This document shows positions 27,216 through 37,889 of a DNA stretch of 56,349 nt, one piece after another. The stretch lies in assembly GCF_025515305.1 (NCBI RefSeq), contig NZ_JAOPHT010000020.1, positions 1 to 56,349 on the forward strand, written 5' to 3'. The notes under the pieces were generated by a model. The model searched no databases. It worked only from the letters and a program-made list of their open reading frames with translations, and was not told the DNA's origin. Both the position numbers and the translations under genes were made by a program. This DNA comes from Roseicyclus sediminis. Lineage in GTDB: Bacteria > Pseudomonadota > Alphaproteobacteria > Rhodobacterales > Rhodobacteraceae. Position 1 is the first letter of the stretch. The number at the start of each line of letters is the position of its first letter.

Positions 27216-27605
27216 TCAGCCTTGCTCCTGATAGGAAATGAACTCCAGAAGCGAGTTGTCTGGATCGCGGAAATAGACGCTTCGCCCGAGGCCTCGCGCC
27301 CCCGGTCGTTCGACCGGGCCGAGTTCCATCTCCACCCCGCAGCGGGCCAGATGCTCGATGGCGCCCTCGATCGGCCCGTGCCACTCGAAACAGAGGTCGC
27401 TTCCGCCGGGCATCACGGGCAGTCCCGCGCGCGGAAATCCGATCTGGTCCGGGCCGTGGGTGTTGAGTTGGACGTGGCCAAAGCGGAACACGTAGCCGAT
27501 GCCGTAGGGAACGATCTCGGCCTCAAGGACGTCGCGGTAGAAGGCCATGGAGCGCTCCCAGTCGCCGACATGGATAACGCAGTGGTCGAAACTGATCCGG
27601 GCCAT
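27216..27605 (-). CDS. VOC-family (glyoxalase/dioxygenase-like) protein
   Basis: A 129-residue protein with two beta-alpha-beta-beta-beta modules. The first metal-binding His is in FDHCVIHVGDWERSMAFYRD, and the end YFRDPDNSLLEFISY supplies the closing Glu; HVQLNTHG and FEWHGPIE supply other candidate ligands. VOC proteins act as glyoxalases, dioxygenases, epimerases or resistance proteins. It is the third gene of the aldolase/SAF-dehydrogenase unit (TGATG overlap with the preceding gene), so it probably acts on an intermediate of that pathway, perhaps as an isomerase or lyase. The exact reaction is unknown. Confidence 0.82.
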   Translation of the reverse strand: MARISFDHCVIHVGDWERSMAFYRDVLEAEIVPYGIGYVFRFGHVQLNTHGPDQIGFPRAGLPVMPGGSDLCFEWHGPIEGAIEHLARCGVEMELGPVERPGARGLGRSVYFRDPDNSLLEFISYQEQG

Positions 27606-28927
27606 CAGCCGCCCTCCGTAGCCGGCGAGACGGCCGCGGCGATCATGTCCTCACGCAGGCGCACGGCCTGACGGCTCGCGTCGAGGTCCACGTCGTCCAT
27701 CGACAGCGCCCGTCCCGCCGGCACCGAGCGGCGGAGCCGGACCCCGTGTGCCAGCCCGATCGGCAGGAGCCGCTCTCGCGCGCTGCGCGCGGCGGGGGCG
27801 AGACGACCGTAGACGGTGAAACCGCCTTCGCCGTCCAGCGTTTCGCCCGCGGCGAGGTCGCGCTTGGCCACGGCGGCCACGTCGCCGCACCAGCCCCGCG
27901 TCGTGCCGGTCGGCTCTCCGCGCAGGGCGGCGCTGAGGATCGAGATGGACAATTCCATGCCGATCATGTGGAACGGCTTGTACATGGCGGCGTACCGCCC
28001 GGTTTGGTCCGTCGGCAGGCCATATTGCCTGAAACAGGCGGCGGCATAGTCGTTCGGCGCTTTCAGGACCACATAGACGCCCCAGCGCAGGTCACGGAAG
28101 ACGGGCCGCCCGTCCCGCTCGAGCGAGGAGACGACCTCGACCATGCCGTCGTGCTCGAGGCACCCGCCGATGTCGCGCGGTCGCAGCACATGGGCGAGAT
28201 CGTCGACGCCGCAGGGCGGGAAGCCGAGCCCCTCGGACGGGACGTCGACGCCGCAGGCATTGGCGATCGCGGCCATCTCGAGCGCCGATTTCGTACCGTC
28301 CAGGAAGGAGTTGAACATTTGCGGGTTCATGCCCGCATCCGCGGCCTGCGCGGCGGTGAGCCCGTAGTGCTGCCAGACGTCGTCAGGTGTGACCTGGTGG
28401 TATTCCGGCAGATACTTTGTGCCCTTGCCCGCTGCCGCGACCGTGAAGCCTGCCGCGCGCGCCCAGTCCACCATCTCGGCCACGAGGGCGGGCTGGTCGC
28501 CATAGGCCATGGAGTAGACGACCCCCTGCGCGCGCGCCTTGGCCGCCAGCACGGGTCCGGCGAGGACATCGGCCTCGACATTGACCATGACGACGTGCAA
28601 CCCCGCCTCGATCGCGGCGAGCGCGTGGGCGATGCCCGCCTCGGGATGGCCCGTCGCCTCCACCATGACCTCGATGCCCTCGCCAAGCGCGCCCGTCACG
28701 TCGTCGGTGAAGCGCGTCGAAGCGATCCGCGCCTCGTCCCAGCCGACCTCGCGGCAAGCGGCCCGCGCCTTGGCCGGATCGAGATCCGCGATCACGGCGA
28801 CGTCTAGGCCCGCGATGGTCGGCACCTGCGACAGGAACATCGACCCGAACTTGCCGGCTCCGACCAGGGCGACGCGGACGGGGCGGCCCGCCTCCGCGCG
28901 CGCGGCTGCAAGCGTGGTGAGGTTCAT
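27605..28927 (-). CDS. Homoserine-dehydrogenase-like oxidoreductase with C-terminal SAF domain
   Basis: A 440-residue NAD(P)-binding enzyme. The Rossmann loop VALVGAGKFGSMFLSQV is near residue 18, followed by VEATGHPEAGIAHALAAIEAG, typical of the COG4091 family (predicted homoserine dehydrogenases with SAF domain). A SAF domain occupies the last 90 residues (AAVAKRDLAAGETLDGEGGF and AHGVRLRRSVPAGRALSMDD). No member acts in the threonine pathway as far as is known; several sit in sugar-acid catabolic clusters. It follows the class II aldolase gene by 16 bases. ATG at 28925-28927 is used. The substrate is unknown. Confidence 0.82.
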   Translation of the reverse strand: MNLTTLAAARAEAGRPVRVALVGAGKFGSMFLSQVPTIAGLDVAVIADLDPAKARAACREVGWDEARIASTRFTDDVTGALGEGIEVMVEATGHPEAGIAHALAAIEAGLHVVMVNVEADVLAGPVLAAKARAQGVVYSMAYGDQPALVAEMVDWARAAGFTVAAAGKGTKYLPEYHQVTPDDVWQHYGLTAAQAADAGMNPQMFNSFLDGTKSALEMAAIANACGVDVPSEGLGFPPCGVDDLAHVLRPRDIGGCLEHDGMVEVVSSLERDGRPVFRDLRWGVYVVLKAPNDYAAACFRQYGLPTDQTGRYAAMYKPFHMIGMELSISILSAALRGEPTGTTRGWCGDVAAVAKRDLAAGETLDGEGGFTVYGRLAPAARSARERLLPIGLAHGVRLRRSVPAGRALSMDDVDLDASRQAVRLREDMIAAAVSPATEGG

Positions 28928-28943
28928 GCTGTCACGCCCGCGC

Positions 28944-29756
28944 TCAGTCGAACATGTCGGGCTGGTCCTCGACAAGCTGGTTCCAGATCGTCTGGAAATG
29001 CAGCCAGCCGATATATTCGCTGCCCACGTGCTCGCGGCTGTAGCGCGCCCGCTCGGACGGAATGCGGATCGGCTCTACGCCGGAAGCTGCGATGGCAAGC
29101 TGCTGCTGGCAGCAGCGCTCGAGCGCAATGAACCAGAAAGCGGCGCTCTCGATGGAATGGCGCGACGCGGTCAGCAGGCCGTGGTTCTGGTGAAGCGCGG
29201 CCTTCACGCCCTTGAACGCCTTCGCCACGTCGCTGCCGGCGTGGTTCTCGACGGCCACGGCGCCGCCCTGCTCGCCGATCACCACATGATCCTCGAAGAA
29301 GGCGCAGGCGTCCTGCGTGATCGGGTCGATGGGGCGGCCCGTGGCGCACCATGCCGTGCCGTAGGTCGTGTGAGCGTGGCACATTGCGATGATGTCGGGA
29401 TGCTCTTCGTGCACGTTGGCGTGCAGGATGAAGCCGGCGCGATTTACGGCGTGGCTGCCTTCGATCACCTTGCCGTCGTGATCGACGAGGATCAGGTTCG
29501 ACATCTTCACCTTATCGAAGTGCACGCACATCGGGTTCGTCCAGTAGAGCTCGGGCCGCTCCGGGTCGCGCACCGTCAGGTGGCCGGCAAATCCGTAATC
29601 GAAACCCTGTTGCGCGAAAGCGCGGCAGGCGGCCACCAGGCGTTCCTTGCGATGGCGCCGCTCCTCCTCGACCGAGGCGAATTCGGGGATCTCCGGAAAG
29701 ATCAGCTCTTCCTGCTCCGGCTGGTAGATCGAGACCCGGTTACCTAGATCGAGCAT
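28944..29756 (-). CDS. Class II aldolase/adducin-family protein
   Basis: A 270-residue enzyme. The metal-binding HAH is in MCHAHTTYGTAW and the later His in LHQNHGLLTASR; RAFAQQGFDYGFAGHLTVRDP is the N-terminal phosphate/substrate region of the family. Class II aldolases cleave or decarboxylate phosphorylated sugar acids with Zn or Mn; this subgroup also occurs with non-sugar substrates. ATG at 29756 is chosen because GGAGGG lies seven to twelve bases upstream; an ATG at 29780 would add an unsupported leader. It is the first gene of a three-gene unit and is divergent from a LysR gene, with a near-perfect dyad between them. Confidence 0.85.
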   Translation of the reverse strand: MLDLGNRVSIYQPEQEELIFPEIPEFASVEEERRHRKERLVAACRAFAQQGFDYGFAGHLTVRDPERPELYWTNPMCVHFDKVKMSNLILVDHDGKVIEGSHAVNRAGFILHANVHEEHPDIIAMCHAHTTYGTAWCATGRPIDPITQDACAFFEDHVVIGEQGGAVAVENHAGSDVAKAFKGVKAALHQNHGLLTASRHSIESAAFWFIALERCCQQQLAIAASGVEPIRIPSERARYSREHVGSEYIGWLHFQTIWNQLVEDQPDMFD

Positions 29757-29862
29757 GGCGAGACCCTCCGCTTGCACCATTGCATCCGGGCGCGCCCTTC
29801 GCGGGCCGCCGTCACGATCACCTATCTTGAGAATTGGGCCTCAGCCGTGCAATGAAATGGAT

Positions 29863-29879: not shown

Positions 29880-29896
29880 GCAAGAAGGGGTGCGTG

Positions 29897-30808
29897 ATGA
29901 AGGACGACCGTCTTCTGGAGATGCGCGTGTTCCGCGCCGTGGTCGAGAGCGGAGGGTTTTCCTCGGCCGCCAACATGCTGGGCGCGAGCCAGCCCTTCGT
30001 GAGCCAGACGATCCGCCGGCTTGAGGCGCGGCTGGGGGCGACACTCCTGCATCGCACCACGCGCGGGCAACGCCTGACCCCCGAGGGCGAGCGGTTCCTC
30101 TTCGCCGCGCGGACAGCCATACGCGCGATCGAGGAGGCGGAGGCGCTCTGGCAGCGGGAGGAGGCGCAGATCGAGGGGCAGCTTCGTGTCTCGGCGCCCA
30201 TCGCCTTCGGTCTCGATCGGCTGTCTCCCCTCGTTCCCGACTTCCTGTCACGGCACCCGAACCTGTCGTTGGACCTGCGCCTGACGGATGACCACGAGAA
30301 CCTGATCGCGGACGGCATCGACGTGGCGGTCCGCATGGGACGGCTGAGCGATTCGGGCCTGATACATCGGCGGCTCTGCCGCCTGCGCAGGATCGTGGTC
30401 ACCGCTCCTGGCCTCGTCGAGCGTCACGGCATGCCCGAGACGCTCGAGGATCTCTCGCGCATGCCCTGTGTGGCTTGGGACAGCAGCCGCGAGCACCTGA
30501 ACCGCTGGCGTTTCGAACGCGACGGCGCGCACGTGACCTTCCACGCCCGGAGTCGGTTCCGAAGCAACCAGGGCATGTCGCTCTTCGCGATGTGTCTCGC
30601 GGGCGTCGGGGTGATGCGCGTCGCCGAGCATCTCGCCCGGCCGGCGATCCACCAGGGGCGGCTGATCCAGCTTCTCGACCATCTCGCGCCGGCCGACGAC
30701 ACCGCGATCCATGCCGTATTCCTGCCCGAGCGCGACGTGGTTCCGCGCATCCGCACGCTTGTCGATTTCCTTGCCGCAGCCTTCCAAGCGCCGGATTGGG
30801 AAGACTGA
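29897..30808 (+). CDS. LysR-family regulator, divergent from the aldolase unit
   Basis: A 303-residue LysR protein with helix-turn-helix segments LLEMRVFRAVVESGGFSSAA and ASQPFVSQTIRRLEARLG, and an effector domain of the CrgA type (IEGQLRVSAPIAFG). ATG at 29897 is used, with AAGGGG about eight bases upstream; GTG three bases earlier is equally possible. Its divergent position and the dyad in the shared promoter region make the class II aldolase unit the likely target. It ends 59 bases before the GntR gene and has no strong terminator there. Confidence 0.87.
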   Translation: MKDDRLLEMRVFRAVVESGGFSSAANMLGASQPFVSQTIRRLEARLGATLLHRTTRGQRLTPEGERFLFAARTAIRAIEEAEALWQREEAQIEGQLRVSAPIAFGLDRLSPLVPDFLSRHPNLSLDLRLTDDHENLIADGIDVAVRMGRLSDSGLIHRRLCRLRRIVVTAPGLVERHGMPETLEDLSRMPCVAWDSSREHLNRWRFERDGAHVTFHARSRFRSNQGMSLFAMCLAGVGVMRVAEHLARPAIHQGRLIQLLDHLAPADDTAIHAVFLPERDVVPRIRTLVDFLAAAFQAPDWED

Positions 30809-30817
30809 AAGTGGTGC

Positions 30818-30846
30818 TTGATCTTTTTAGACGTAAGACATATTGA
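30818..30846 (+). promoter_or_regulatory. Likely promoter of the GntR operon
   Basis: TTGATC (30818-30823) and TATTGA (30841-30846) are spaced by 17 bases, close to sigma-70 consensus and in the most AT-rich stretch of the area. A perfect palindrome follows immediately (30848-30861), where the transcript would begin. Confidence 0.45.
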
Positions 30847-30847
30847 A

Positions 30848-30861
30848 TTCTGAATTCAGAA
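30848..30861. promoter_or_regulatory. Perfect 14-base palindrome, probable GntR operator
   Basis: TTCTGAATTCAGAA is fully self-complementary. It lies just after the likely -10 element and 7-20 bases before the GntR start codon, so bound regulator would block transcription. FCD-type GntR proteins usually bind short AT-rich palindromes. Confidence 0.6.
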
Positions 30862-30867
30862 CTCGGA

Positions 30868-31575
30868 ATGCAGATGAAGCCGCTCAAGTCCAACCCCAAC
30901 CTCGCAGATCAGGTCTACGATGCCCTCGTCGACGAGATCTGCGGCGGCATGCTGCCTGCCGGCGCCCATCTCGTGCAAGAGCAGCTCGCTGAGCGCCTCG
31001 GTGTCTCGCGGCAGCCGGTGCAGCAGGCCATGGCGCGGCTCAAGGCGGACGGCATCGTGGAAGAGATCGGGCGCCGTGGCCTATGGGTCGCACCGCTCGA
31101 CCCGGATCTCATGCGCCATCACTACGACATCCGCGCGGTGCTCGACGGGCTGGCGGCGCGTCTTGCGGCGGAACGAGTGCGTGCAGGCGCCGGAGGCACA
31201 TTCCGGAGGCGCGCCGACGACATCCTTGCTGCCGGCACCCAAGCCGTCCAGACCGGCGACACCGCCGGGCAGGTGCGGCAGGACCGTGCACTTCATGCGC
31301 TCGTCTACGAGACATCGGGCAACCCGCTCTTGGCGCGGACGGCCGAACCGCATTGGCGGTTCCTGCAACGCGCGATGGGCGAGGTGCTTCGCCGGGCGAC
31401 GCTGCCGAAGGAAATCTGGCGTCAGCACGCCGAGATCGCGGAAGCCATCGCGGCGGGAGAACCTGACCGCGCGGAGCGTCTCATGACCGAACACGACCTC
31501 GCCGCGGCGCGCACGCTCCAGGCGGCGCTCGCAGCCAGCATGGACGCGGATGCGCGCAAGGGAGCCTCGGCATGA
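30868..31575 (+). CDS. GntR-family (FadR/FCD) regulator of the acyl-CoA operon
   Basis: A 235-residue regulator. The winged helix spans about residues 8-75 (ADQVYDALVDEICGGMLPAG, then LAERLGVSRQPVQQAMARLK) and the all-helical FCD ligand domain covers 90-225. FCD metal ligands are suggested by YDIRAVLDGLAARLA (Asp) and HALVYETSGNP (His). Such regulators usually sense an organic acid or acyl-CoA made or used by the operon. ATG at 30868 or 30874 are both possible. It is the first gene of the operon, and its stop overlaps the ligase start as ATGA, so it probably represses itself and the whole unit. Confidence 0.88.
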   Translation: MQMKPLKSNPNLADQVYDALVDEICGGMLPAGAHLVQEQLAERLGVSRQPVQQAMARLKADGIVEEIGRRGLWVAPLDPDLMRHHYDIRAVLDGLAARLAAERVRAGAGGTFRRRADDILAAGTQAVQTGDTAGQVRQDRALHALVYETSGNPLLARTAEPHWRFLQRAMGEVLRRATLPKEIWRQHAEIAEAIAAGEPDRAERLMTEHDLAAARTLQAALAASMDADARKGASA

Positions 31576-33128
31576 CGAAGATGCTGACCGTTGGGGAAAT
31601 GCTGGGTGCGCAGGCCCGCCTCCAGCCTGATCGGATCGGGGCTCGCGACCTCGAGCGGGCGCTGACCTTCCGGGAGTGGAATGCGCGCGCCTGCCGCCTC
31701 GCGAATGCGCTGCTCGGGCTCGGCCTCACGAAGGGTGACCGAGTCGCCGTCTTCGCCTACAACCGCTTGGAGTGGGCGGAGATCTACGCCGCCGTCGCCA
31801 AGTCCGGTTTGATCGCCGTTCCGGTCAACTTCCGCCTGACAGCGCCCGAAGCCCGGTTCATCTGTGCCGATAGCGGCGTGCGCGCGGTAATCGCGGAGGC
31901 CGCGCTCGCGCCGCTCGCCGACGCCTTCCGCGACGACCTCGGGATCGGCGACGAGCGTCACATCCTGATCGGCGGGGACGCGGCGCCCGGCTGGCGGAGC
32001 TACGAGGACCTGATCGCCTCTGGCGCGGGGGGCGAGCCCGACGTCCACGTGACGCCCGACGATCCGTGGTGCCTGATGTACACTTCAGGCACCACGGGCA
32101 ACCCCAAGGGCGCGATCCGGTCGCACCGGGGCATGGGGATGCTCGCGCTCATGACCGAGGTGGAGCTGGCGCTGAAGCGGCGGGACAATGCGCTCCTTGT
32201 CATGCCGATGTGCCACGCGAACTCGCTCAACTTCTTCACCTCCTTCCTCGGCATCGGGGCCTGCGTCACGATCTTCTCGCGGCCGAGCTTCGACGCCGCG
32301 CTCTGCCTGCGAACGATCGGCGAGATGGGGATCACCTTCACCTCGCTCGTTCCCACGCATTACATGATGCTCCTTGATGTGCCCGAGACCGAGCGTGCGG
32401 GCGATTTCGGGTCGGTCGAGAAGCTTATGGTCTCGTCCGCGCCCGCGAGAGTGGAGACGAAGCGCGCCATCATGGAGATGTTCCCGAACTCCGGCCTCTA
32501 CGAGCTCTATGGTTCGACCGAAGCGGGATGGGTGACGTTCCTTCATCCCGACGAGCAGTTCGACCACCTCGGCACCGTCGGCCGCGAGGTCGTGGGCTCC
32601 GCCCCGATCCGACTTCTCGACGACGAGGGGCGCGAGGTGCCGGACGGGCAGCCGGGGGAACTCTACTCCTGCGGACCCTACGCCTTCGACGGCTACTGGA
32701 ACCTTCCCGAGAAAACGGCGGAAGCCTTCCGCGGCCCCTACCTCTCCGTCGGGGACATGGCCATCCGGGACGAGCACGGATTCATCCGGCTGATCGACCG
32801 CAAGAAGAACATGATCATCTCAGGCGGAGAGAACGTCTATCCCACCGAGGTGGAGGCCGTCCTCGCCCAGCATCCCGACATTAAGGACGTGGCCGTTGTT
32901 GGCTGCCCGGACGAGAAATGGGGCGAGCGCGTCGCCGCCGCCGTCGTGCTCCGCAAAGGCGCAGAGGTCTCAGCCGATGATCTCATTGCTTGGTCGAAGG
33001 ACCGTCTCGCCGGCTACAAGCGTCCGCGCGAAATCCTGTTCCTTGGCCCCGACGAGATGCCGCGCAACGCGACGGGCAAAATCCTTCACCGCGTCCTCAG
33101 GGACATGATGGCCGCGCACGTCGCCTGA
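31572..33128 (+). CDS. Acyl-CoA ligase (AMP-forming)
   Basis: A 518-residue enzyme of the ANL superfamily that activates a carboxylic acid with ATP and CoA. The P-loop is LMYTSGTTGNPKGAIRSHRG (near 178), motif A5 is YELYGSTEAGWVTF, the hinge/A8 region is IDRKKNMIISGGENVYPTE and the catalytic Lys is in RNATGKILHRV. The layout matches fatty- or aryl-acid CoA ligases such as LvaE or FadK-like enzymes. It would commit the unknown substrate of the operon to CoA-linked breakdown. It is translationally coupled to the GntR gene. The substrate is not predictable from sequence. Confidence 0.9.
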   Translation: MTKMLTVGEMLGAQARLQPDRIGARDLERALTFREWNARACRLANALLGLGLTKGDRVAVFAYNRLEWAEIYAAVAKSGLIAVPVNFRLTAPEARFICADSGVRAVIAEAALAPLADAFRDDLGIGDERHILIGGDAAPGWRSYEDLIASGAGGEPDVHVTPDDPWCLMYTSGTTGNPKGAIRSHRGMGMLALMTEVELALKRRDNALLVMPMCHANSLNFFTSFLGIGACVTIFSRPSFDAALCLRTIGEMGITFTSLVPTHYMMLLDVPETERAGDFGSVEKLMVSSAPARVETKRAIMEMFPNSGLYELYGSTEAGWVTFLHPDEQFDHLGTVGREVVGSAPIRLLDDEGREVPDGQPGELYSCGPYAFDGYWNLPEKTAEAFRGPYLSVGDMAIRDEHGFIRLIDRKKNMIISGGENVYPTEVEAVLAQHPDIKDVAVVGCPDEKWGERVAAAVVLRKGAEVSADDLIAWSKDRLAGYKRPREILFLGPDEMPRNATGKILHRVLRDMMAAHVA

Positions 33129-33161
33129 CGCCTGCGCCGAAGCACGAAAAGGAGACGGCGC

Positions 33162-34892
33162 ATGATCGACCGGCAGGACCTCAACAGCGACCCCGAAAGT
33201 GTCGCCGCCTGGATCGCGACGCTGCTCGAAGCGCGCGGCGTCGGGCGCGTCTTCGGGCTTCAGGGCGGTCACATCCAACCCATCTGGGATCACCTCGCCC
33301 GGCGCGGCATCGCGATCGTGGATGTGCGTGATGAAGGCGCTGCTGTTCACATGGCGCACGCCCATGCGGAACTGACGGGCGAACTCGGCGTCGCGATGGC
33401 CACCGCCGGACCCGGCGTCACGAATTGCGTGACCGGCATCGCGAACGCCTCGCTCGCGCGGGTGCCGGTGCTTCTGATCGGCGGTTGCACCTCGCGGCCG
33501 CAGGCGAACATGGGTCCACTCCAGGACATCCCGCATGTCGACATCATGCGGCCCGTCACGCGCTACAGCCGCACGGCGCGCGTGGCCGAGCAGGTCATTC
33601 GCGAGCTCGACGAGGCCATCGCGCGCGCCACGGGCGACATGGGCGAGCCCGGCCCCGCGTACATCGAGGTGCCTACCGACGTCCTGCGTTCGCGCGTCGG
33701 TCCGTCGCTGATCCCCGAGGACTGGATCGCGCCCAAACCCGCCCGCCGCATGGCGCCCGACCCCGAGGACATCGCCGCCGCAGCATCAGCGATCCGGGCG
33801 GCGAAGCGCCCGCTCGTCGTCAGCGGACGCGGCGCCCGAGGCGCCGGACGCTCTGTCGCGGCGTTTCTCGACGCGGTGGACGCGCTTTATCTCGATACGC
33901 AGGAGAGCCGAGGGCTCGTGCCAGCCGACCACCCCGCGGTCGTCGGAGCCGTGCGTGCGGCGGCCATGGCGCAGGCCGATCTCGTCGTGACGCTGGGGCG
34001 AAAGCTCGACTACCAGCTCGGCTTCGGCTCCCCGGCGGTCTTTCCCCAAGCGCGGTTCCTGCGCATCTCGGACACGACGGGCGAGCTGATCGATAACCGG
34101 CGCGGCGCCGAAATCATGGCGCCCGTTGGCGCCACGCTCGATGCTCTCACGGAGGCGCTCGGCAACGACGCCGGCGCGCGGGACATGGACTGGGTCTCGG
34201 GGCTGCGGGACAAGCATCACGCGCGCATCGCGAAGGGCGCGGATACGCCGGCGCCGAAGACTGGCGGTGATGGTAAGATCCACCCGCTCGCGATCTTCGA
34301 GGCACTTCGTGAGGTGGCCGATCCCGACCACATCGGCATCGCGGACGGCGGCGACCTCCTGAGTTTCGCGCGGATCGGCCTGGCCTCGACGACTTACATG
34401 GACGCGGGCGCCTTCGGCTGCCTCGGCGTGGGCGTGCCCTTCGCGGTGGCGGCTGCGCTCGCCTTTCCGCAGCGGCAAGTGATTTCGGTCAACGGGGACG
34501 GTGCCTACGGAATCAACGCGATGGAGATCGACACGGCCGTGCGGCACGGGGCGAAGGCGGTCTTCATCGTGTCGAACAATGCCGCGTGGAACATCGAGCG
34601 CTACGATCAGGAGGTGAACTACGGCGGCCGCGTGGTCGGCACGATGCTTCGTCATTCCGACTATGCCGGCATGGCACGAGCGCTCGGGGCCAATGGCGAG
34701 CGGGTGGAGGACCCGGCCGATCTGGCCGCCGCCATCCGGCGCGGGCTAGAGAACGCGCCCGCCGTGATCGACGTCGTGACCTCGCAGGACGCCGTGTCGT
34801 CGGACGCGCAGAAGGGCCTCGGCTTCGTGCCCGACTACCAGCCACTGACCGCTTGGGACGACGCGGAGCGCAAGCGGCGCGAGACGGCGTGA
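33162..34892 (+). CDS. Thiamine-diphosphate-dependent enzyme (2-hydroxyacyl-CoA lyase or acetolactate-synthase-like)
   Basis: A 576-residue ThDP enzyme with the usual three domains: pyrimidine-binding at about 10-180, central at 200-330 and diphosphate-binding at 375-550. The catalytic Glu is in [29 protein letters not shown] and the following stretch [20 protein letters not shown] resemble oxalyl-CoA decarboxylase/2-hydroxyacyl-CoA lyases (the MG-x-x-Q-x-x-P pattern). The ThDP/Mg motif begins [17 protein letters not shown] and ends IVSNN. If a lyase, it would cleave a 2-hydroxyacyl-CoA into formyl-CoA and an aldehyde. The GGG after DG of the usual lyase signature is not obvious, so an acetolactate-synthase-like carboligase remains possible. 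The 33-base gap from the ligase gene and TGATG overlap with the SDR gene place it in the operon. Confidence 0.75.
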
Positions 34893-35638
34893 TGCGGATC
34901 GCGCTGGAAGGCAAGCGCGCCCTCGTCACTGGCGCGTCGGGCGGCCTCGGCCTCCACTTCGCGCAGGTTCTGGCGGAGGCCGGGGCGGAGGTCACGCTCG
35001 CCGCGCGCCGGGCCGATATGGTGGAGGCAGAGGCAGAGGGACTGCGCCGGGCCGGGAATTTGGCCGACGCGAGCGCGCTCGACGTCACCTCCGGGGAAAG
35101 CATCGCCGACTTCTTCGCGCGCCGCCCGGCCTTCGACATCCTTGTGAACAACGCGGGCATCTCAGGCGAGGGCGCCGCGCTGGACATGGAGACCGACGCC
35201 TTCCGCGGTGTCGTCGACACGAACCTCACCGGCGTCTTCGCGGTGGCGCAGGCGGCCGGGCGCGGGATGCGCAAGGCGGGCGGCGGGAGCATCGTGAACA
35301 TCGCCTCGATCCTCGGGCTGCGCGTCGCTGGCCATGTCGCAGCTTACGCGGCTTCGAAGGCGGCGGTCGTGCAGCTGACCAAGGCGCTTGCGCTCGAATG
35401 GGCGCGCCATGGCATCCGGGTCAACGCGCTTTGCCCAGGCTACATCGAGACGCCAATCAACGAAGCCTTCTTTGCAACGGAGGCCGGTAAGGCGCTGGTC
35501 CGGCGCATCCCGCAGCGGCGGCTCGGGCGTCTCGCGGACCTCGACGGACCGCTCCTGCTGCTCGCATCGGATCATTCCGCCTACATGACCGGCGCGGTCG
35601 TCGCGGTCGACGGCGGGCACCTCGTTTCAGGATTGTGA
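34892..35638 (+). CDS. Short-chain dehydrogenase/reductase
   Basis: A 248-residue classical SDR. The cofactor loop is VTGASGGLGLHFA (TGxxxGxG) near residues 11-23, the NNAGISGEG motif is near 86, the active Ser is in NIASILGLRVAG and the Tyr-x-x-x-Lys is AAYAASKAA. The loop CPGYIETPINE is also standard. The residue after the second beta strand is Arg (AARRAD), favouring NADP(H). It would oxidise a hydroxyl or reduce a keto group on the pathway intermediate, in the position of LvaD in the levulinate operon. ATG overlaps the ThDP gene stop as TGATG. Confidence 0.9.
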   Translation: MRIALEGKRALVTGASGGLGLHFAQVLAEAGAEVTLAARRADMVEAEAEGLRRAGNLADASALDVTSGESIADFFARRPAFDILVNNAGISGEGAALDMETDAFRGVVDTNLTGVFAVAQAAGRGMRKAGGGSIVNIASILGLRVAGHVAAYAASKAAVVQLTKALALEWARHGIRVNALCPGYIETPINEAFFATEAGKALVRRIPQRRLGRLADLDGPLLLLASDHSAYMTGAVVAVDGGHLVSGL

Positions 35639-35646
35639 GACAGACC

Positions 35647-36852
35647 ATGGATTTCTCCATCTCTCCCGAACTCGCCGATCTACGCGACCGGATCGAGGCT
35701 TTCGTCGCGGCGGATATCCTGCCCCTCGAGGCGGACCACGCGAACTGGGACGCGCATGACAACATCGCCGAAGCGCCGCTCGCCGCCCTCCGCGCGAAGG
35801 CACGCGCCGAGGGGCTCTGGTGCCCGCAGCTCTCGCCCGCGAACGGCGGGCTCGGCCTCGGCAAGATGGGCATGGCCGTCACATACGAGGCGATGAACCG
35901 CTCGATCTTCGGGCCGGTCGTCTTCAACGCTGCCGCCCCCGACGACGGCAACATGATGGTGCTCGAGGCGCTCGGCACCGAGGCGCAGAAGGCGCGCTGG
36001 CTCGCCCCAATCGCCGCGGGCGAGGTGCGCTCTGCCTTCGCCATGACCGAGCCGCACCCGGGCGGCGGCTCCGACCCCGGCATGATGCGCACGACGGCGA
36101 CGCGCGAGGGCGACGACTACGTCATCCGCGGCCACAAGTGGTTCATCACCGGCGCAGGCGAGGCGGCGCATTTCATCCTCGTCGCCCGTACCTCCGACGA
36201 TCCGCGGCGGGGCCTGACCGCCTTTCTCCACCACCGCGACGATCCGGGCTGGCGGATTGTGCGGCGCATCGGGATCATGGGCCCGGAGGAACATGGCGGG
36301 CATTGCGAGATCGTCTACGAGGGCCTGCGCATCCCGGCGGAAAACGTGCTGCTGGAGGAGGGGCGCGGCCTCAAGGTCACGCAGACGCGGCTCGGGCCCG
36401 CACGGCTGACGCATTGCATGCGCTGGCTGGGGCTTGCGAAGCGCTGCATGGAGATCGCGCGGGACTACGCGGAGCGTCGTGAGGGGTTCGGCATCCGCCT
36501 CGCCAACCGGGAGAGCGTGCAGGTGATGCTGGGCGATCTCGCCATGCAGATCGAGGTGGGCCGCCTCCTCGTGATGAAGGCTGCGTGGGAAATCGATCGT
36601 GGTGGCTTCGCGCAGAAGGAGGTGTCGATGGCCAAGATCCATGTGGCGAACCTCCTTCACAAGGCGGCGGACACGGCGGTCCAGATAAACGGCGCGCGCG
36701 GCTACTCGACGGACACGGTGCTGGAGTGGATTTACCGCTACGCCCGCCAGGCGCGGCTGGTGGACGGGGCGGACGAGGTCCACAAGATGATCCTGAACCG
36801 CCATCTCTCCGAGCAGGGTGCGGAATTCTACCGCTGGGCGACCGCACCATGA
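35647..36852 (+). CDS. Acyl-CoA dehydrogenase, ACAD10/11 type
   Basis: A 401-residue FAD enzyme. The FAD-binding middle part contains AFAMTEPHPGGGSDPGMM and VIRGHKWFITGAGEAAH; the C-terminal helical part contains INGARGYSTDTVLEW and LVDGADEVHKMILNRHL, where the Asp-Glu-Val-His phrase is typical of the ACAD10/11 and LvaC branch. These enzymes act on 4-phospho-acyl-CoA made by a partner kinase, releasing phosphate to give an enoyl-CoA that is rehydrated to 3-hydroxyacyl-CoA. The partner kinase is the next gene, overlapping as ATGA. ATG at 35647 is used; GTG at 35635 would add four residues. No other beta-oxidation gene follows. Confidence 0.88.
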   Translation: MDFSISPELADLRDRIEAFVAADILPLEADHANWDAHDNIAEAPLAALRAKARAEGLWCPQLSPANGGLGLGKMGMAVTYEAMNRSIFGPVVFNAAAPDDGNMMVLEALGTEAQKARWLAPIAAGEVRSAFAMTEPHPGGGSDPGMMRTTATREGDDYVIRGHKWFITGAGEAAHFILVARTSDDPRRGLTAFLHHRDDPGWRIVRRIGIMGPEEHGGHCEIVYEGLRIPAENVLLEEGRGLKVTQTRLGPARLTHCMRWLGLAKRCMEIARDYAERREGFGIRLANRESVQVMLGDLAMQIEVGRLLVMKAAWEIDRGGFAQKEVSMAKIHVANLLHKAADTAVQINGARGYSTDTVLEWIYRYARQARLVDGADEVHKMILNRHLSEQGAEFYRWATAP

Positions 36853-37889
36853 CAGCGCAGGTGGAGGGACGCCTCGACTTCGACGCGGACGCGCTCGGGA
36901 CGTTCCTCCGCGCCCGTCTCGGGCCCGACGGGGGGCGCTACGCGCTGACCCGGATCGGCGGCGGGCAGTCGAACCCGACCTACTTCCTAGACTGGGGCGA
37001 CCGCCGGCTGGTCCTGCGAAAGCAGCCCTCAGGCGAGATCCTGCGCGGCGCCCACGCGGTCGACCGGGAGTACCGTGTGATGGTGGCCCTGCATCCGACA
37101 GGTGTTCCGGTGCCCCGCCCGGTTCTCTTCCACGACGACCCGGACATCCTCGGCACTCCCTTCTACCTGATGGAACGAGTCGAGGGCCGCATATTCAACG
37201 ACACCGCGCTCGCCGACCTGCCGCTCGCGGAGCGGCGGGGGATCTGGATGGCGGTCGCCGACACGCTCGCCTCCCTCCACCGCATCCGGCCCGACGCGGT
37301 AGGCCTCGGCGATTACGGCAGGCCAGGCAGCTACTTCGAGCGGCAGATCGCCCGATGGGACAGGCAGTACCGCGCTTCGCCCTCGGGGCCGGTGCCGGAG
37401 ATCGAGGCGCTGCACGCCTGGCTCGTCGCGCAGATGCCGGAGGACGACGGGCTCGTGGCGCTCTGCCATGGGGACTTCCGGCTGGGGAACGTGATGTTCC
37501 ACCCGACCGAGCCGCGCGTCGTCGCCATACTGGACTGGGAGCTTTCGACCCTGGGCCATCCGCTCGCAGATCTCGGCTTCTGCGTGATGCCGTGGCATAC
37601 CGCGCCCGACGAATATGGCGGCCTCCTCGGGCACGACCTCGGCGCGGCGGGGCTGCCGACGAAAGCGGAGGTCGTCGCGCGCTACCGGGCGGGCGTACCC
37701 TTTGACGCGACGCTCCGGCCTTTCCACGAGGCCTTCGCGCTCTACCGCTTCGCCGTCATCTTCGTCGGCATCTCGGACAGAGCACGCGCGGGAACGGCGA
37801 GCGATCCCGACGCCGCGTCTCTCGCGCCCCTTGCCAGGCGGTTTGCGATCCGCGCCATGGAATTGACAGAACGCGCGGCGCATTTCTGA
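36849..37889 (+). CDS. ACAD10/11-type acyl-CoA 4-hydroxy kinase (APH-fold phosphotransferase)
   Basis: A 346-residue kinase of the aminoglycoside-phosphotransferase fold. N-terminal RIGGGQSNPTYFLDWGDRRL and LRKQPSGEILRGAHAVDREY are diagnostic of the family that pairs with, or is fused to, ACAD10/11. The catalytic loop is LCHGDFRLGNVMFHP (Asp, Asn) and the metal loop is ILDWELSTLGHPLADLGF. Known role: ATP-dependent phosphorylation of the 4-hydroxy group of 4-hydroxyacyl-CoA before elimination by ACAD. In Pseudomonas LvaA needs the small partner LvaB; no LvaB-like gene is visible here. It is the last gene of the operon; no clear terminator was found. Confidence 0.88.
   Translation: MTAQVEGRLDFDADALGTFLRARLGPDGGRYALTRIGGGQSNPTYFLDWGDRRLVLRKQPSGEILRGAHAVDREYRVMVALHPTGVPVPRPVLFHDDPDILGTPFYLMERVEGRIFNDTALADLPLAERRGIWMAVADTLASLHRIRPDAVGLGDYGRPGSYFERQIARWDRQYRASPSGPVPEIEALHAWLVAQMPEDDGLVALCHGDFRLGNVMFHPTEPRVVAILDWELSTLGHPLADLGFCVMPWHTAPDEYGGLLGHDLGAAGLPTKAEVVARYRAGVPFDATLRPFHEAFALYRFAVIFVGISDRARAGTASDPDAASLAPLARRFAIRAMELTERAAHF

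What the first reader, a model, noticed from the sequence alone, without database searches (positions are those of the whole stretch)
30868..37889. Candidate new catabolic system: Lva-like 4-hydroxyacid operon with an added ThDP enzyme
A GntR regulator heads five tightly coupled genes: acyl-CoA ligase, ThDP enzyme, SDR, ACAD10/11-type dehydrogenase and matching kinase. The Pseudomonas levulinate pathway uses LvaE (ligase), LvaD (SDR), LvaA (kinase) and LvaC (ACAD) to turn 4-oxo/4-hydroxy acids into 3-hydroxyacyl-CoA. Here four of these activities are present, LvaB is missing and a ThDP lyase/carboligase is inserted in the operon. This suggests a pathway that phosphorylates and eliminates a hydroxyl, then cleaves a 2-hydroxyacyl-CoA or condenses an aldehyde. 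The substrate is not known.
Basis: partly seen in the sequence, partly recalled or inferred. Interest (0 to 1): 0.78.

Follow-up and report, generated by a model that had tools for sequence, protein, structure and literature searches.

The report
Two-headed hydroxy-acid breakdown operon
A marine-type bacterium carries one self-regulated operon that joins two known ways of getting rid of awkward hydroxyl groups on small acids (clipping off one carbon, or phosphorylating and eliminating the hydroxyl), a pairing that recurs in other bacteria and points to an undescribed pathway for alcohol-derived hydroxy acids.

Summary
The operon is real. The ThDP enzyme is an ortholog of Actinomycetospora 2-hydroxyacyl-CoA lyase (HACL; 1064 bits, cut-off 600; 62% identity; all eight checked catalytic/pocket residues kept). 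The ACAD carries the five ACAD10/11/LvaC residues for 4-phosphoacyl-CoA; the kinase is of ACAD11 type. The cassette also lives without HACL, sometimes with a different ligase, and has met HACL repeatedly, with two kinase lineages. A palindrome before gntR is the only such site in the genome. In Azoarcus sp. KH32C the same palindrome precedes three units (PQQ-alcohol/aldehyde dehydrogenases; ligase/HACL; TRAP-ACAD-SDR-kinase), so both halves look like one regulon. Best reading: alcohols are oxidised to hydroxy acids and made CoA esters; 2-hydroxyacyl-CoA is cut to formyl-CoA plus a carbonyl, while 4-oxo/4-hydroxyacyl-CoA is reduced, phosphorylated and eliminated. Mammals use the same two kinds of route for 4-hydroxy acids. 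Substrate and activities are inferred. New variant of known kinds.

The parts
30818..30846 (+). promoter-like TTGATC-N17-TATTGA, overlapping the palindrome
   Evidence: sequence; TTGAC followed by TATTGAA is visible at a similar place in many relatives. The generic promoter scan did not report it.
30845..30864 (.). operator-like palindrome (core TTCTGAATTCAGAA 30848-30861), probably bound by the GntR regulator
   Evidence: (1 match, chance 0.03); the only match with up to 2 mismatches in the whole genome
30868..31575 (+). GntR/FCD regulator
   Evidence: Pfam FCD 78.4 and GntR 54.3 bits
31572..33128 (+). AMP-forming acyl-CoA ligase, partner of the lyase; not an HCL
   Evidence: Pfam; beside HACL in 84 of 87 loci; best match to the ligase of the Methylibium PM1 mutase cluster is 27 residues
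33162..34892 (+). ThDP-dependent 2-hydroxyacyl-CoA lyase (HACL)
   Evidence: NF058623 1064.2 bits, cut-off 600; PDB 7pt1 E 2.4e-215; catalytic and pocket residues
34892..35638 (+). SDR oxidoreductase, predicted 4-oxoacyl-CoA reductase
   Evidence: Pfam adh_short_C2; role inferred from the recurrent SDR-ACAD-kinase cassette
35647..36852 (+). ACAD10/11/LvaC-type acyl-CoA dehydrogenase (dephosphorylating)
   Evidence: best PDB match ACAD11 8v3u E 1.9e-69; R626/R631/H634/R637/D753 equivalents
36849..37889 (+). ACAD11-type APH-fold kinase, predicted 4-hydroxyacyl-CoA kinase
   Evidence: 3dxp E 3.3e-82, 8v3v (ACAD11) E 1.2e-66; HGD and LDWE motifs
28944..29780 (-). class II aldolase/adducin family gene; possible associated gene, not in the operon
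   Evidence: NF004855 387.6 bits, cut-off 255; relatives of 97% and 74% identity near HACL in L054 and directly after HACL in L083

Best explanation
The operon is a GntR-controlled kit for small hydroxy acids that block beta-oxidation. The ligase makes the CoA ester. A 2-hydroxyacyl-CoA of about C4-C5, best if methyl-branched (2-hydroxyisobutyryl-CoA type), is split by HACL into formyl-CoA and a ketone or aldehyde. A 4-oxoacyl-CoA is reduced by the SDR to 4-hydroxyacyl-CoA, which the kinase phosphorylates; the ACAD then removes the phosphate to give a 2-enoyl-CoA for beta-oxidation. The two heads serve one inducing substrate class, made in relatives by oxidising alcohols. They act either on 2- and 4-hydroxy homologues that share the ligase, or as two exits for the same 4-hydroxy acid: phospho-elimination, or one beta-oxidation round to the 2-hydroxyacyl-CoA followed by HACL. 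Shown here: gene identities, diagnostic residues, recurrent association, shared operator-like site. Inferred: activities, GntR binding, substrate, and which of the two relations holds.
For: HACL: NF058623 far over its cut-off; 62% identity to the characterised lyase over 559 columns; H44, T88, L127, Q128, I492, E493, L566, V569 all kept in 88 of 89 rows whatever the neighbours, the exception being the distant L052; enzyme and lid described in PMC8760513. ACAD: all five residues in 60 of 61 rows (rows under 36% identity or 300 aligned residues were left out), described for ACAD11/LvaC in PMC12440821. Coupling: cassette, whole or in part, beside HACL in 17 of 68 evaluable loci, in two separated parts of the HACL tree; linked/free state must change at least 5 times on the kinase tree and 6 on the ACAD tree by supported branches; a different kinase lineage in types C and D, with a DUF6285 neighbour in L082 and Azoarcus and a sub-cut-off one in L051. 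One regulon: in Azoarcus KH32C four sites with at most 1 mismatch (0 of 200 shuffles reach 4) lie before the Rieske/PQQ-ADH/ALDH unit (two), between ligase and HACL, and before TRAP-ACAD-SDR-kinase-DUF6285. A site also precedes a cytochrome c gene and PQQ dehydrogenase in L128 and L099, and an aldehyde dehydrogenase in L045. Mouse liver uses both kinds of route for 4-hydroxy acids (PMC12440821, passage). The genome has a formate dehydrogenase.
Against: No enzyme was assayed. Most HACL loci lack the cassette (51 of 68), so HACL works without it. In the window's genome the operator occurs once, so no alcohol oxidation genes are tied to this operon there. In G053 the three sites with one mismatch are all on contigs other than the HACL contig and were not read, so the site is not strictly HACL-bound. 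No acetone carboxylase gamma subunit was found in this genome or in the 13 other HACL-bearing genomes tested, and no Phenol_Hydrox monooxygenase in this genome (where no control rang either), so the fate of an acetone product is unexplained. The genome has a second kinase/ACAD pair elsewhere, so the cassette may be redundant.
Confidence: 0.62

Rival explanations
1. Strict series through a 4-oxo acid: a 2-hydroxy-2-methyl dicarboxylic acid such as 2-hydroxy-2-methylglutarate is cut by HACL to formyl-CoA and levulinate, which ligase, SDR, kinase and ACAD then degrade as in the Lva pathway.
For: Uses every gene and explains the repeated linkage and the shared operator-like site. A citrate-lyase-alpha and a fumarase-type gene run into ligase-HACL in L081, so hydroxy-dicarboxylates may be handled near some HACLs.
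Against: The acyl-pocket and lid residues that limit the characterised lyase to C4-C5 acyls (PMC8760513) are unchanged here, and among the positions checked there is no new cationic residue to hold a distal carboxylate.
Confidence: 0.12
2. Two unrelated functions: HACL and the kinase cassette merely share a transcript and act on different compounds.
For: Each module is common without the other: 51 of 68 evaluable HACL loci lack the cassette; HACL was seen in only 1 (L161) of the 44 kinase-centred loci fetched.
Against: Joined repeatedly and with two kinase lineages. In Azoarcus they are separate transcription units with the same operator-like site, which passenger genes would not need.
Confidence: 0.14
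3. HACL runs in the synthetic direction, condensing formyl-CoA with a ketone or aldehyde to build 2-hydroxyacyl-CoA, as in one-carbon assimilation or acetone activation.
For: The characterised enzyme is reversible and carboligates (PMC13327070, passages).
Against: A ligase sits beside HACL in 84 of 87 loci, which suggests that free acids are the input. No 2-hydroxyisobutyryl-CoA mutase gene lies in the operon.
Confidence: 0.06
4. The kinase/ACAD pair acts on something other than 4-hydroxyacyl-CoA, for example on the tertiary hydroxyl of the HACL substrate itself.
For: No substrate is known for this lineage. The kinase fold is generic.
Against: The ACAD's phosphate-binding residues and catalytic Asp are those of ACAD10/11 and LvaC. 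ACAD10 knock-out data show specificity for the 4-position (PMC11342911, passage).
Confidence: 0.1

Closest known systems
Actinobacterial 2-HIBA pathway of Actinomycetospora chiangmaiensis (lyase-HCL cluster)
   Same: Orthologous ThDP lyase with identical checked active-site residues; a GntR regulator and a CoA ligase in the cluster; alcohol/aldehyde dehydrogenases in the cluster there and near it in some relatives here.
   Different: The ligase is not HCL (best match 27 residues to the Methylibium mutase-cluster ligase). SDR, ACAD and kinase are absent from the actinobacterial cluster as described (PMC7176365, parts 1-4 of 6).
Pseudomonas lva levulinate operon
   Same: Kinase, LvaC-type ACAD, SDR and a ligase in one operon; same predicted 4-hydroxyacyl-CoA chemistry.
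   Different: Kinase of ACAD11 type; no DUF6285 gene in the genome (LvaB as DUF6285 is recalled); GntR instead of the sigma-54 type LvaR; HACL present; the ligase belongs with HACL.
Mammalian ACAD10/ACAD11 and the two 4-hydroxy acid routes
   Same: Kinase+ACAD chemistry; phosphate-binding residues; co-existence with an alpha-oxidation exit.
   Different: Separate genes in the bacterium, small-substrate HACL instead of HACL1, one transcript.
HACL-free SDR-ACAD-(ligase)-kinase cassettes of Rhodobacteraceae
   Same: Same cassette order; in the closest ones 49-69% SDR, 68-81% ACAD and 55-69% kinase identity.
   Different: A different ligase (31-35% identity) between ACAD and kinase in 14 of 44 kinase loci, and no HACL in 43 of 44.

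Membership tests
AcHACL-type 2-hydroxyacyl-CoA lyase | score over the curated model cut-off | tested here: met
   1064.2 vs 600 bits
AcHACL-type 2-hydroxyacyl-CoA lyase | catalytic E493 and Q128, pocket H44/T88/L127/I492, lid L566/V569 | tested here: met
   all present
AcHACL-type 2-hydroxyacyl-CoA lyase | cleaves 2-hydroxyacyl-CoA to formyl-CoA and a carbonyl | not testable with these tools
   needs an assay
2-HIBA lyase-HCL pathway | HCL-type ligase beside the lyase | tested here: not met
   best local alignment of P0002 to the ligase of the PM1 mutase cluster is 27 residues, E 4e-4
Lva pathway | LvaC-type ACAD with phosphate triad and catalytic Asp | tested here: met
Lva pathway | LvaB partner (DUF6285; that LvaB is DUF6285 is recalled) | tested here: not met
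   PF19802: no match in the genome, rings in 2 of 14 control genomes; present in L082 and L136
Lva pathway | LvaE-type ligase and LvaD-type reductase | tested here: inconclusive
   a ligase and an SDR are present, but no LvaE/LvaD sequence was compared; the ligase is the HACL partner
Lva pathway | sigma-54 type LvaR regulator | tested here: not met
   regulator is GntR/FCD; LvaR type from PMC6692424
ACAD10/11 kinase-dehydrogenase | R626, H634, R637 and Asp753 equivalents | tested here: met
ACAD10/11 kinase-dehydrogenase | kinase with HGD and DWE motifs of the ACAD11 kinase | tested here: met
ACAD10/11 kinase-dehydrogenase | both domains in one polypeptide | tested here: not met
   two overlapping genes

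The most novel reading that the evidence does not exclude
A bacterial operon in which alpha-oxidation (HACL) and phospho-elimination (kinase+ACAD) are two exits of one pathway for diol-derived 4-hydroxy acids: for example, a tertiary acid such as 4-hydroxy-4-methylvalerate passes either through the kinase or, after one beta-oxidation round, as 2-hydroxyisobutyryl-CoA through HACL to acetone and formyl-CoA. This would be a genetically encoded bacterial counterpart of the mammalian two-route catabolism of 4-hydroxy acids.
Probability: 0.22. Interest if true: 0.78.

Novelty: new variant of a known kind. Interest (0 to 1): 0.6.

Why it matters
It moves the small-substrate HACL from the actinobacteria in which it was characterised to a widespread proteobacterial ligase-HACL pair, and ties it by an apparent shared operator to the ACAD10/11-type route. 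Both halves bear on open questions: the natural role of short-chain HACLs (wanted for one-carbon synthesis) and the substrates of the many bacterial ACAD11-like kinases. The conserved operator gives a direct handle: find the inducer and the substrate class follows.

Tried and rejected
Lva operon with an inserted ThDP gene: rejected, since ligase+HACL is the conserved core and HACL-free cassettes, where they have a ligase, have a different one.

ThDP enzyme as acetolactate synthase, oxalyl-CoA decarboxylase or benzaldehyde lyase: rejected by scores.

Ligase as HCL: rejected.

Acetone consumption genes to test 2-HIBA as substrate: PF08882 gave nothing in the own genome (where no control rang); repeated over 50 handles it rang only in G024, so the absence holds at that sensitivity. 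PF02332 gave nothing in the own genome, but nothing rang in its controls, so this is not evidence of absence.

Other regulon members in the own genome by the operator: only the one site. The same scan, at 1 mismatch, in 13 relatives gave 13 sites in 9 of 13 genomes; I read only those in loci I held, and at least four (three in G053, one in G314) lie on contigs other than the HACL contig.

The tool promoter scan found nothing. The DRL-type oxidoreductase and VOC gene upstream had no hit among the fetched HACL loci, so I did not link them. A branched-sugar-acid substrate (DRL plus aldolase) was considered and left as a guess. The dicarboxylate series model is kept as a rival at low weight.

Literature: the listings showed no paper joining HACL with the kinase/ACAD route in bacteria; three were capped lists (20 of 60 shown; 15 of 54; 12 of 146). 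Rand 2017 and Zhang 2009 are not held and are known here only through the papers seen. No structure was predicted.

Cytochrome c, PQQ and aldehyde dehydrogenase names were tested.
Full report
WHAT IS THERE. The window holds a compact + strand operon: gntR 30868-31575, AMP ligase 31572-33128, ThDP enzyme 33162-34892, SDR 34892-35638, ACAD 35647-36852, kinase 36849-37889. Neighbours overlap or lie at most 33 bases apart. Pfam confirms each fold. Upstream are a LysR gene (29894-30808, +) and, on the other strand, a class II aldolase (28944-29780), a DRL/SAF-type oxidoreductase (27605-28975) and a VOC-family protein (27216-27605).

THE ThDP ENZYME IS A 2-HYDROXYACYL-CoA LYASE. It scores 1064.2 bits on NF058623 (cut-off 600) and its best solved relatives are five Actinomycetospora HACL sequences (7pt1, E 2.4e-215; the next is at 5.5e-64). 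Identity is 62% over 559 aligned columns. [quoted passage not shown] its lid with L127 and I492 limits the acyl to C4-C5 (PMC8760513, sections 5 and 11 plus passages). H44, T88, L127, Q128, I492, E493, L566 and V569 are all kept in the window and in 88 of 89 rows; the exception is the distant L052, which keeps only Q128 of the eight. These residues do not differ between loci with and without the kinase cassette, so I expect the same small substrates in all of them.

THE KINASE AND ACAD ARE OF ACAD10/11 TYPE. The ACAD's best solved match is ACAD11 (8v3u, E 1.9e-69); the kinase matches 3dxp and the ACAD11 kinase domain. R626, H634 and R637 of ACAD11, which hold the 4-phosphate, R631, and the catalytic Asp753 (PMC12440821, passages) are present in 60 of 61 ACAD rows; the one failure, L139, is a distant ACAD of 39% identity with a gap at the last position (rows under 36% identity or 300 aligned residues were dropped before the count). 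In ACAD10, ACAD11 and LvaA/LvaC this pair turns 4-hydroxyacyl-CoA into 2-enoyl-CoA by phosphorylation and phosphate elimination (PMC12440821 and PMC11342911, passages).

CORE AND CASSETTE. A scan of genome contigs kept the best 80 of 190 HACL relatives; I added 14 stretches from family members. Without six duplicates this gives 88 loci. A ligase of over 50% identity lies within 1.2 kb on the same strand in 84 of 87 evaluable loci. The script missed L047, L051 and L126; L047 and L126 do show a ligase, hidden by an over-long reading frame, so only L051 is a true miss. The cassette, whole or in part, follows in 17 of 68 loci that have at least 4 kb downstream or show it (20 truncated loci were set aside; L060 is cut before the kinase, L085 lacks the SDR, L051 has only part of HACL; the window itself is not counted). 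Because loci showing the cassette were counted whatever their length, 17 of 68 leans high. In the family sample, 13 of 390 genomes have a HACL over the cut-off; the cassette lies beside it in 4 of 13 (G000, G310, G314, G200), and a fifth, G140, is cut off by its contig end. The sampling leans towards relatives of the window.

THE CASSETTE ALSO LIVES WITHOUT HACL. A kinase search of 384 family genomes gave 224 with a match at E 1e-60. Of the 38 places listed there at 52% identity or more I fetched 36; the other two are the window and G310, already held. Eight plasmid loci were added. HACL was seen in 1 of these 44 (L161). A ligase stands between ACAD and kinase in 14 of 44, at 31-35% identity to the window's. 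The window's ligase therefore belongs to the HACL side.

REPEATED JOINING. On the HACL tree (89 rows) cassettes sit in two separated parts. On the kinase tree (60 rows) and ACAD tree (58 rows) the linked/free state has to change at least 5 and 6 times by supported branches. These are quick trees with SH-aLRT only, the tool warned of long branches (L052, L136, L145, L146), and changes may be gains or losses. Types C (L047, L051, L082, L099) and D (Azoarcus sp. KH32C, L136) use a kinase only about 25-32% identical to the window's, with the motif LDWEFA instead of LDWELS. A DUF6285 gene lies beside it in L082 and L136 and, below Pfam's cut-off, in L051; I did not establish one in L047 or L099. 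That LvaB belongs to DUF6285 is recalled, not tested. Two kinase lineages joined to the same lyase argue for function rather than accident.

ONE OPERATOR. A palindrome, TTCTGAATTCAGAA, lies at 30848-30861, six bases before the gntR start (chance 0.03 in the window at up to 2 mismatches), and is the only such site in the 4.14 Mb genome. Within 120 bases upstream of gntR, a site with at most 2 mismatches stands in 29 of 32 loci whose GntR is at least 50% identical to the window's, and in 6 of 11 at 45-50%, five of them Methylobacterium, with or without the cassette. In Azoarcus KH32C the sites lie before a Rieske/PQQ-alcohol dehydrogenase/aldehyde dehydrogenase unit (two sites), between the divergent ligase and HACL genes, and before TRAP transporter-ACAD-SDR-kinase-DUF6285-phosphatase (4 sites with at most 1 mismatch, none in 200 shuffles). 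In L128 and L099 a site precedes a cytochrome c gene followed by a PQQ dehydrogenase; in L082 it lies in the same place, inside a reading frame that was called open from the locus edge; in L045 one precedes an aldehyde dehydrogenase gene. So in relatives both halves, and alcohol oxidation, fall in one predicted regulon. That GntR binds this site is inferred. Against exclusiveness: the three one-mismatch sites of G053 lie on contigs other than the HACL contig.

HOW IT PROBABLY WORKS. Acid plus CoA (ligase). If the hydroxyl is on C2, HACL removes C1 as formyl-CoA and leaves a ketone or aldehyde; a formate dehydrogenase is in the genome. If the group is a 4-oxo or 4-hydroxyl, the SDR reduces it where needed, the kinase phosphorylates it and the ACAD eliminates phosphate. 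[quoted passage not shown] The operon holds the key enzymes of both kinds. Whether the two heads meet on one molecule or serve homologues is open.

AGAINST. No activity is shown. HACL usually occurs without the cassette. No acetone carboxylase gamma subunit was found in the 14 HACL-bearing genomes tested (own, 12 others over the cut-off, and G242 with a partial HACL; a positive rang in G024), so an acetone product has no visible sink. The window's genome shows no second operator site, so its alcohol step, if any, is elsewhere or absent. A second ACAD/kinase pair exists on contig C32.

NOVELTY. Each reaction is known. Their union in one apparently operator-controlled system in Alphaproteobacteria and Azoarcus was not found in the searches listed in Tried and rejected. 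Hence new variant of a known kind.

Noticed in passing
window 28944-29780 (-); L054 5776-7191; L083 11785-12597: A class II aldolase/adducin gene lies near HACL in the window and L054 (97% identical) and directly after HACL, same strand, in L083 (74%); it may act on a hydroxyketone product.
   Followed up: partly
window 27605-28975 (-): DRL-type (DXP-reductoisomerase-like, meaning of DRL recalled) oxidoreductase with a SAF domain beside the aldolase; no hit among the fetched HACL loci.
   Followed up: partly
L137 7977-9737 (Methylibium petroleiphilum PM1 plasmid RPME01): A HACL homologue (50% identical) sits inside a cluster with B12-binding and mutase genes, an AMP ligase and MeaB, which looks like the 2-HIBA mutase cluster of this MTBE degrader.
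   Followed up: partly
L081 3-4160, L063: A citrate-lyase-alpha (CitF) gene and a class I fumarase-type gene run into ligase-HACL, suggesting a hydroxy-dicarboxylate context.
   Followed up: partly
L054 811-4430: Jannaschia seohaensis has a second, upstream ligase-HACL copy whose reading frames are split, apparently decayed.
   Followed up: no
L045 6904-7368, L069, L082, L087, L099, L128; L054, L056, L086, L132: OsmC-like genes occur in six distinct HACL loci (seven with a duplicate) and redoxin-like genes in four; no explanation.
   Followed up: partly
L082 15619-17555, L099: Two genes that look by eye like PhaE/PhaC polyester synthase (Pfam shows only an alpha/beta hydrolase) follow the cassette in type C loci.
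   Followed up: partly
L146 6581-10158 (own genome, contig C32): A second ACAD10/11-type ACAD and kinase pair, kinase 45-48% identical to the window's.
   Followed up: partly
Methylobacterium and Skermanella loci (L094-L130): Ligase-HACL with a divergent, more distant GntR and TRAP transporter genes and no cassette in the stretches seen; possibly another substrate.
   Followed up: no
G053 (contigs C9, C12, C13), G314 C8: Operator-like sites with one mismatch away from the HACL contig; their neighbours were not read and could name further regulon members.
   Followed up: no
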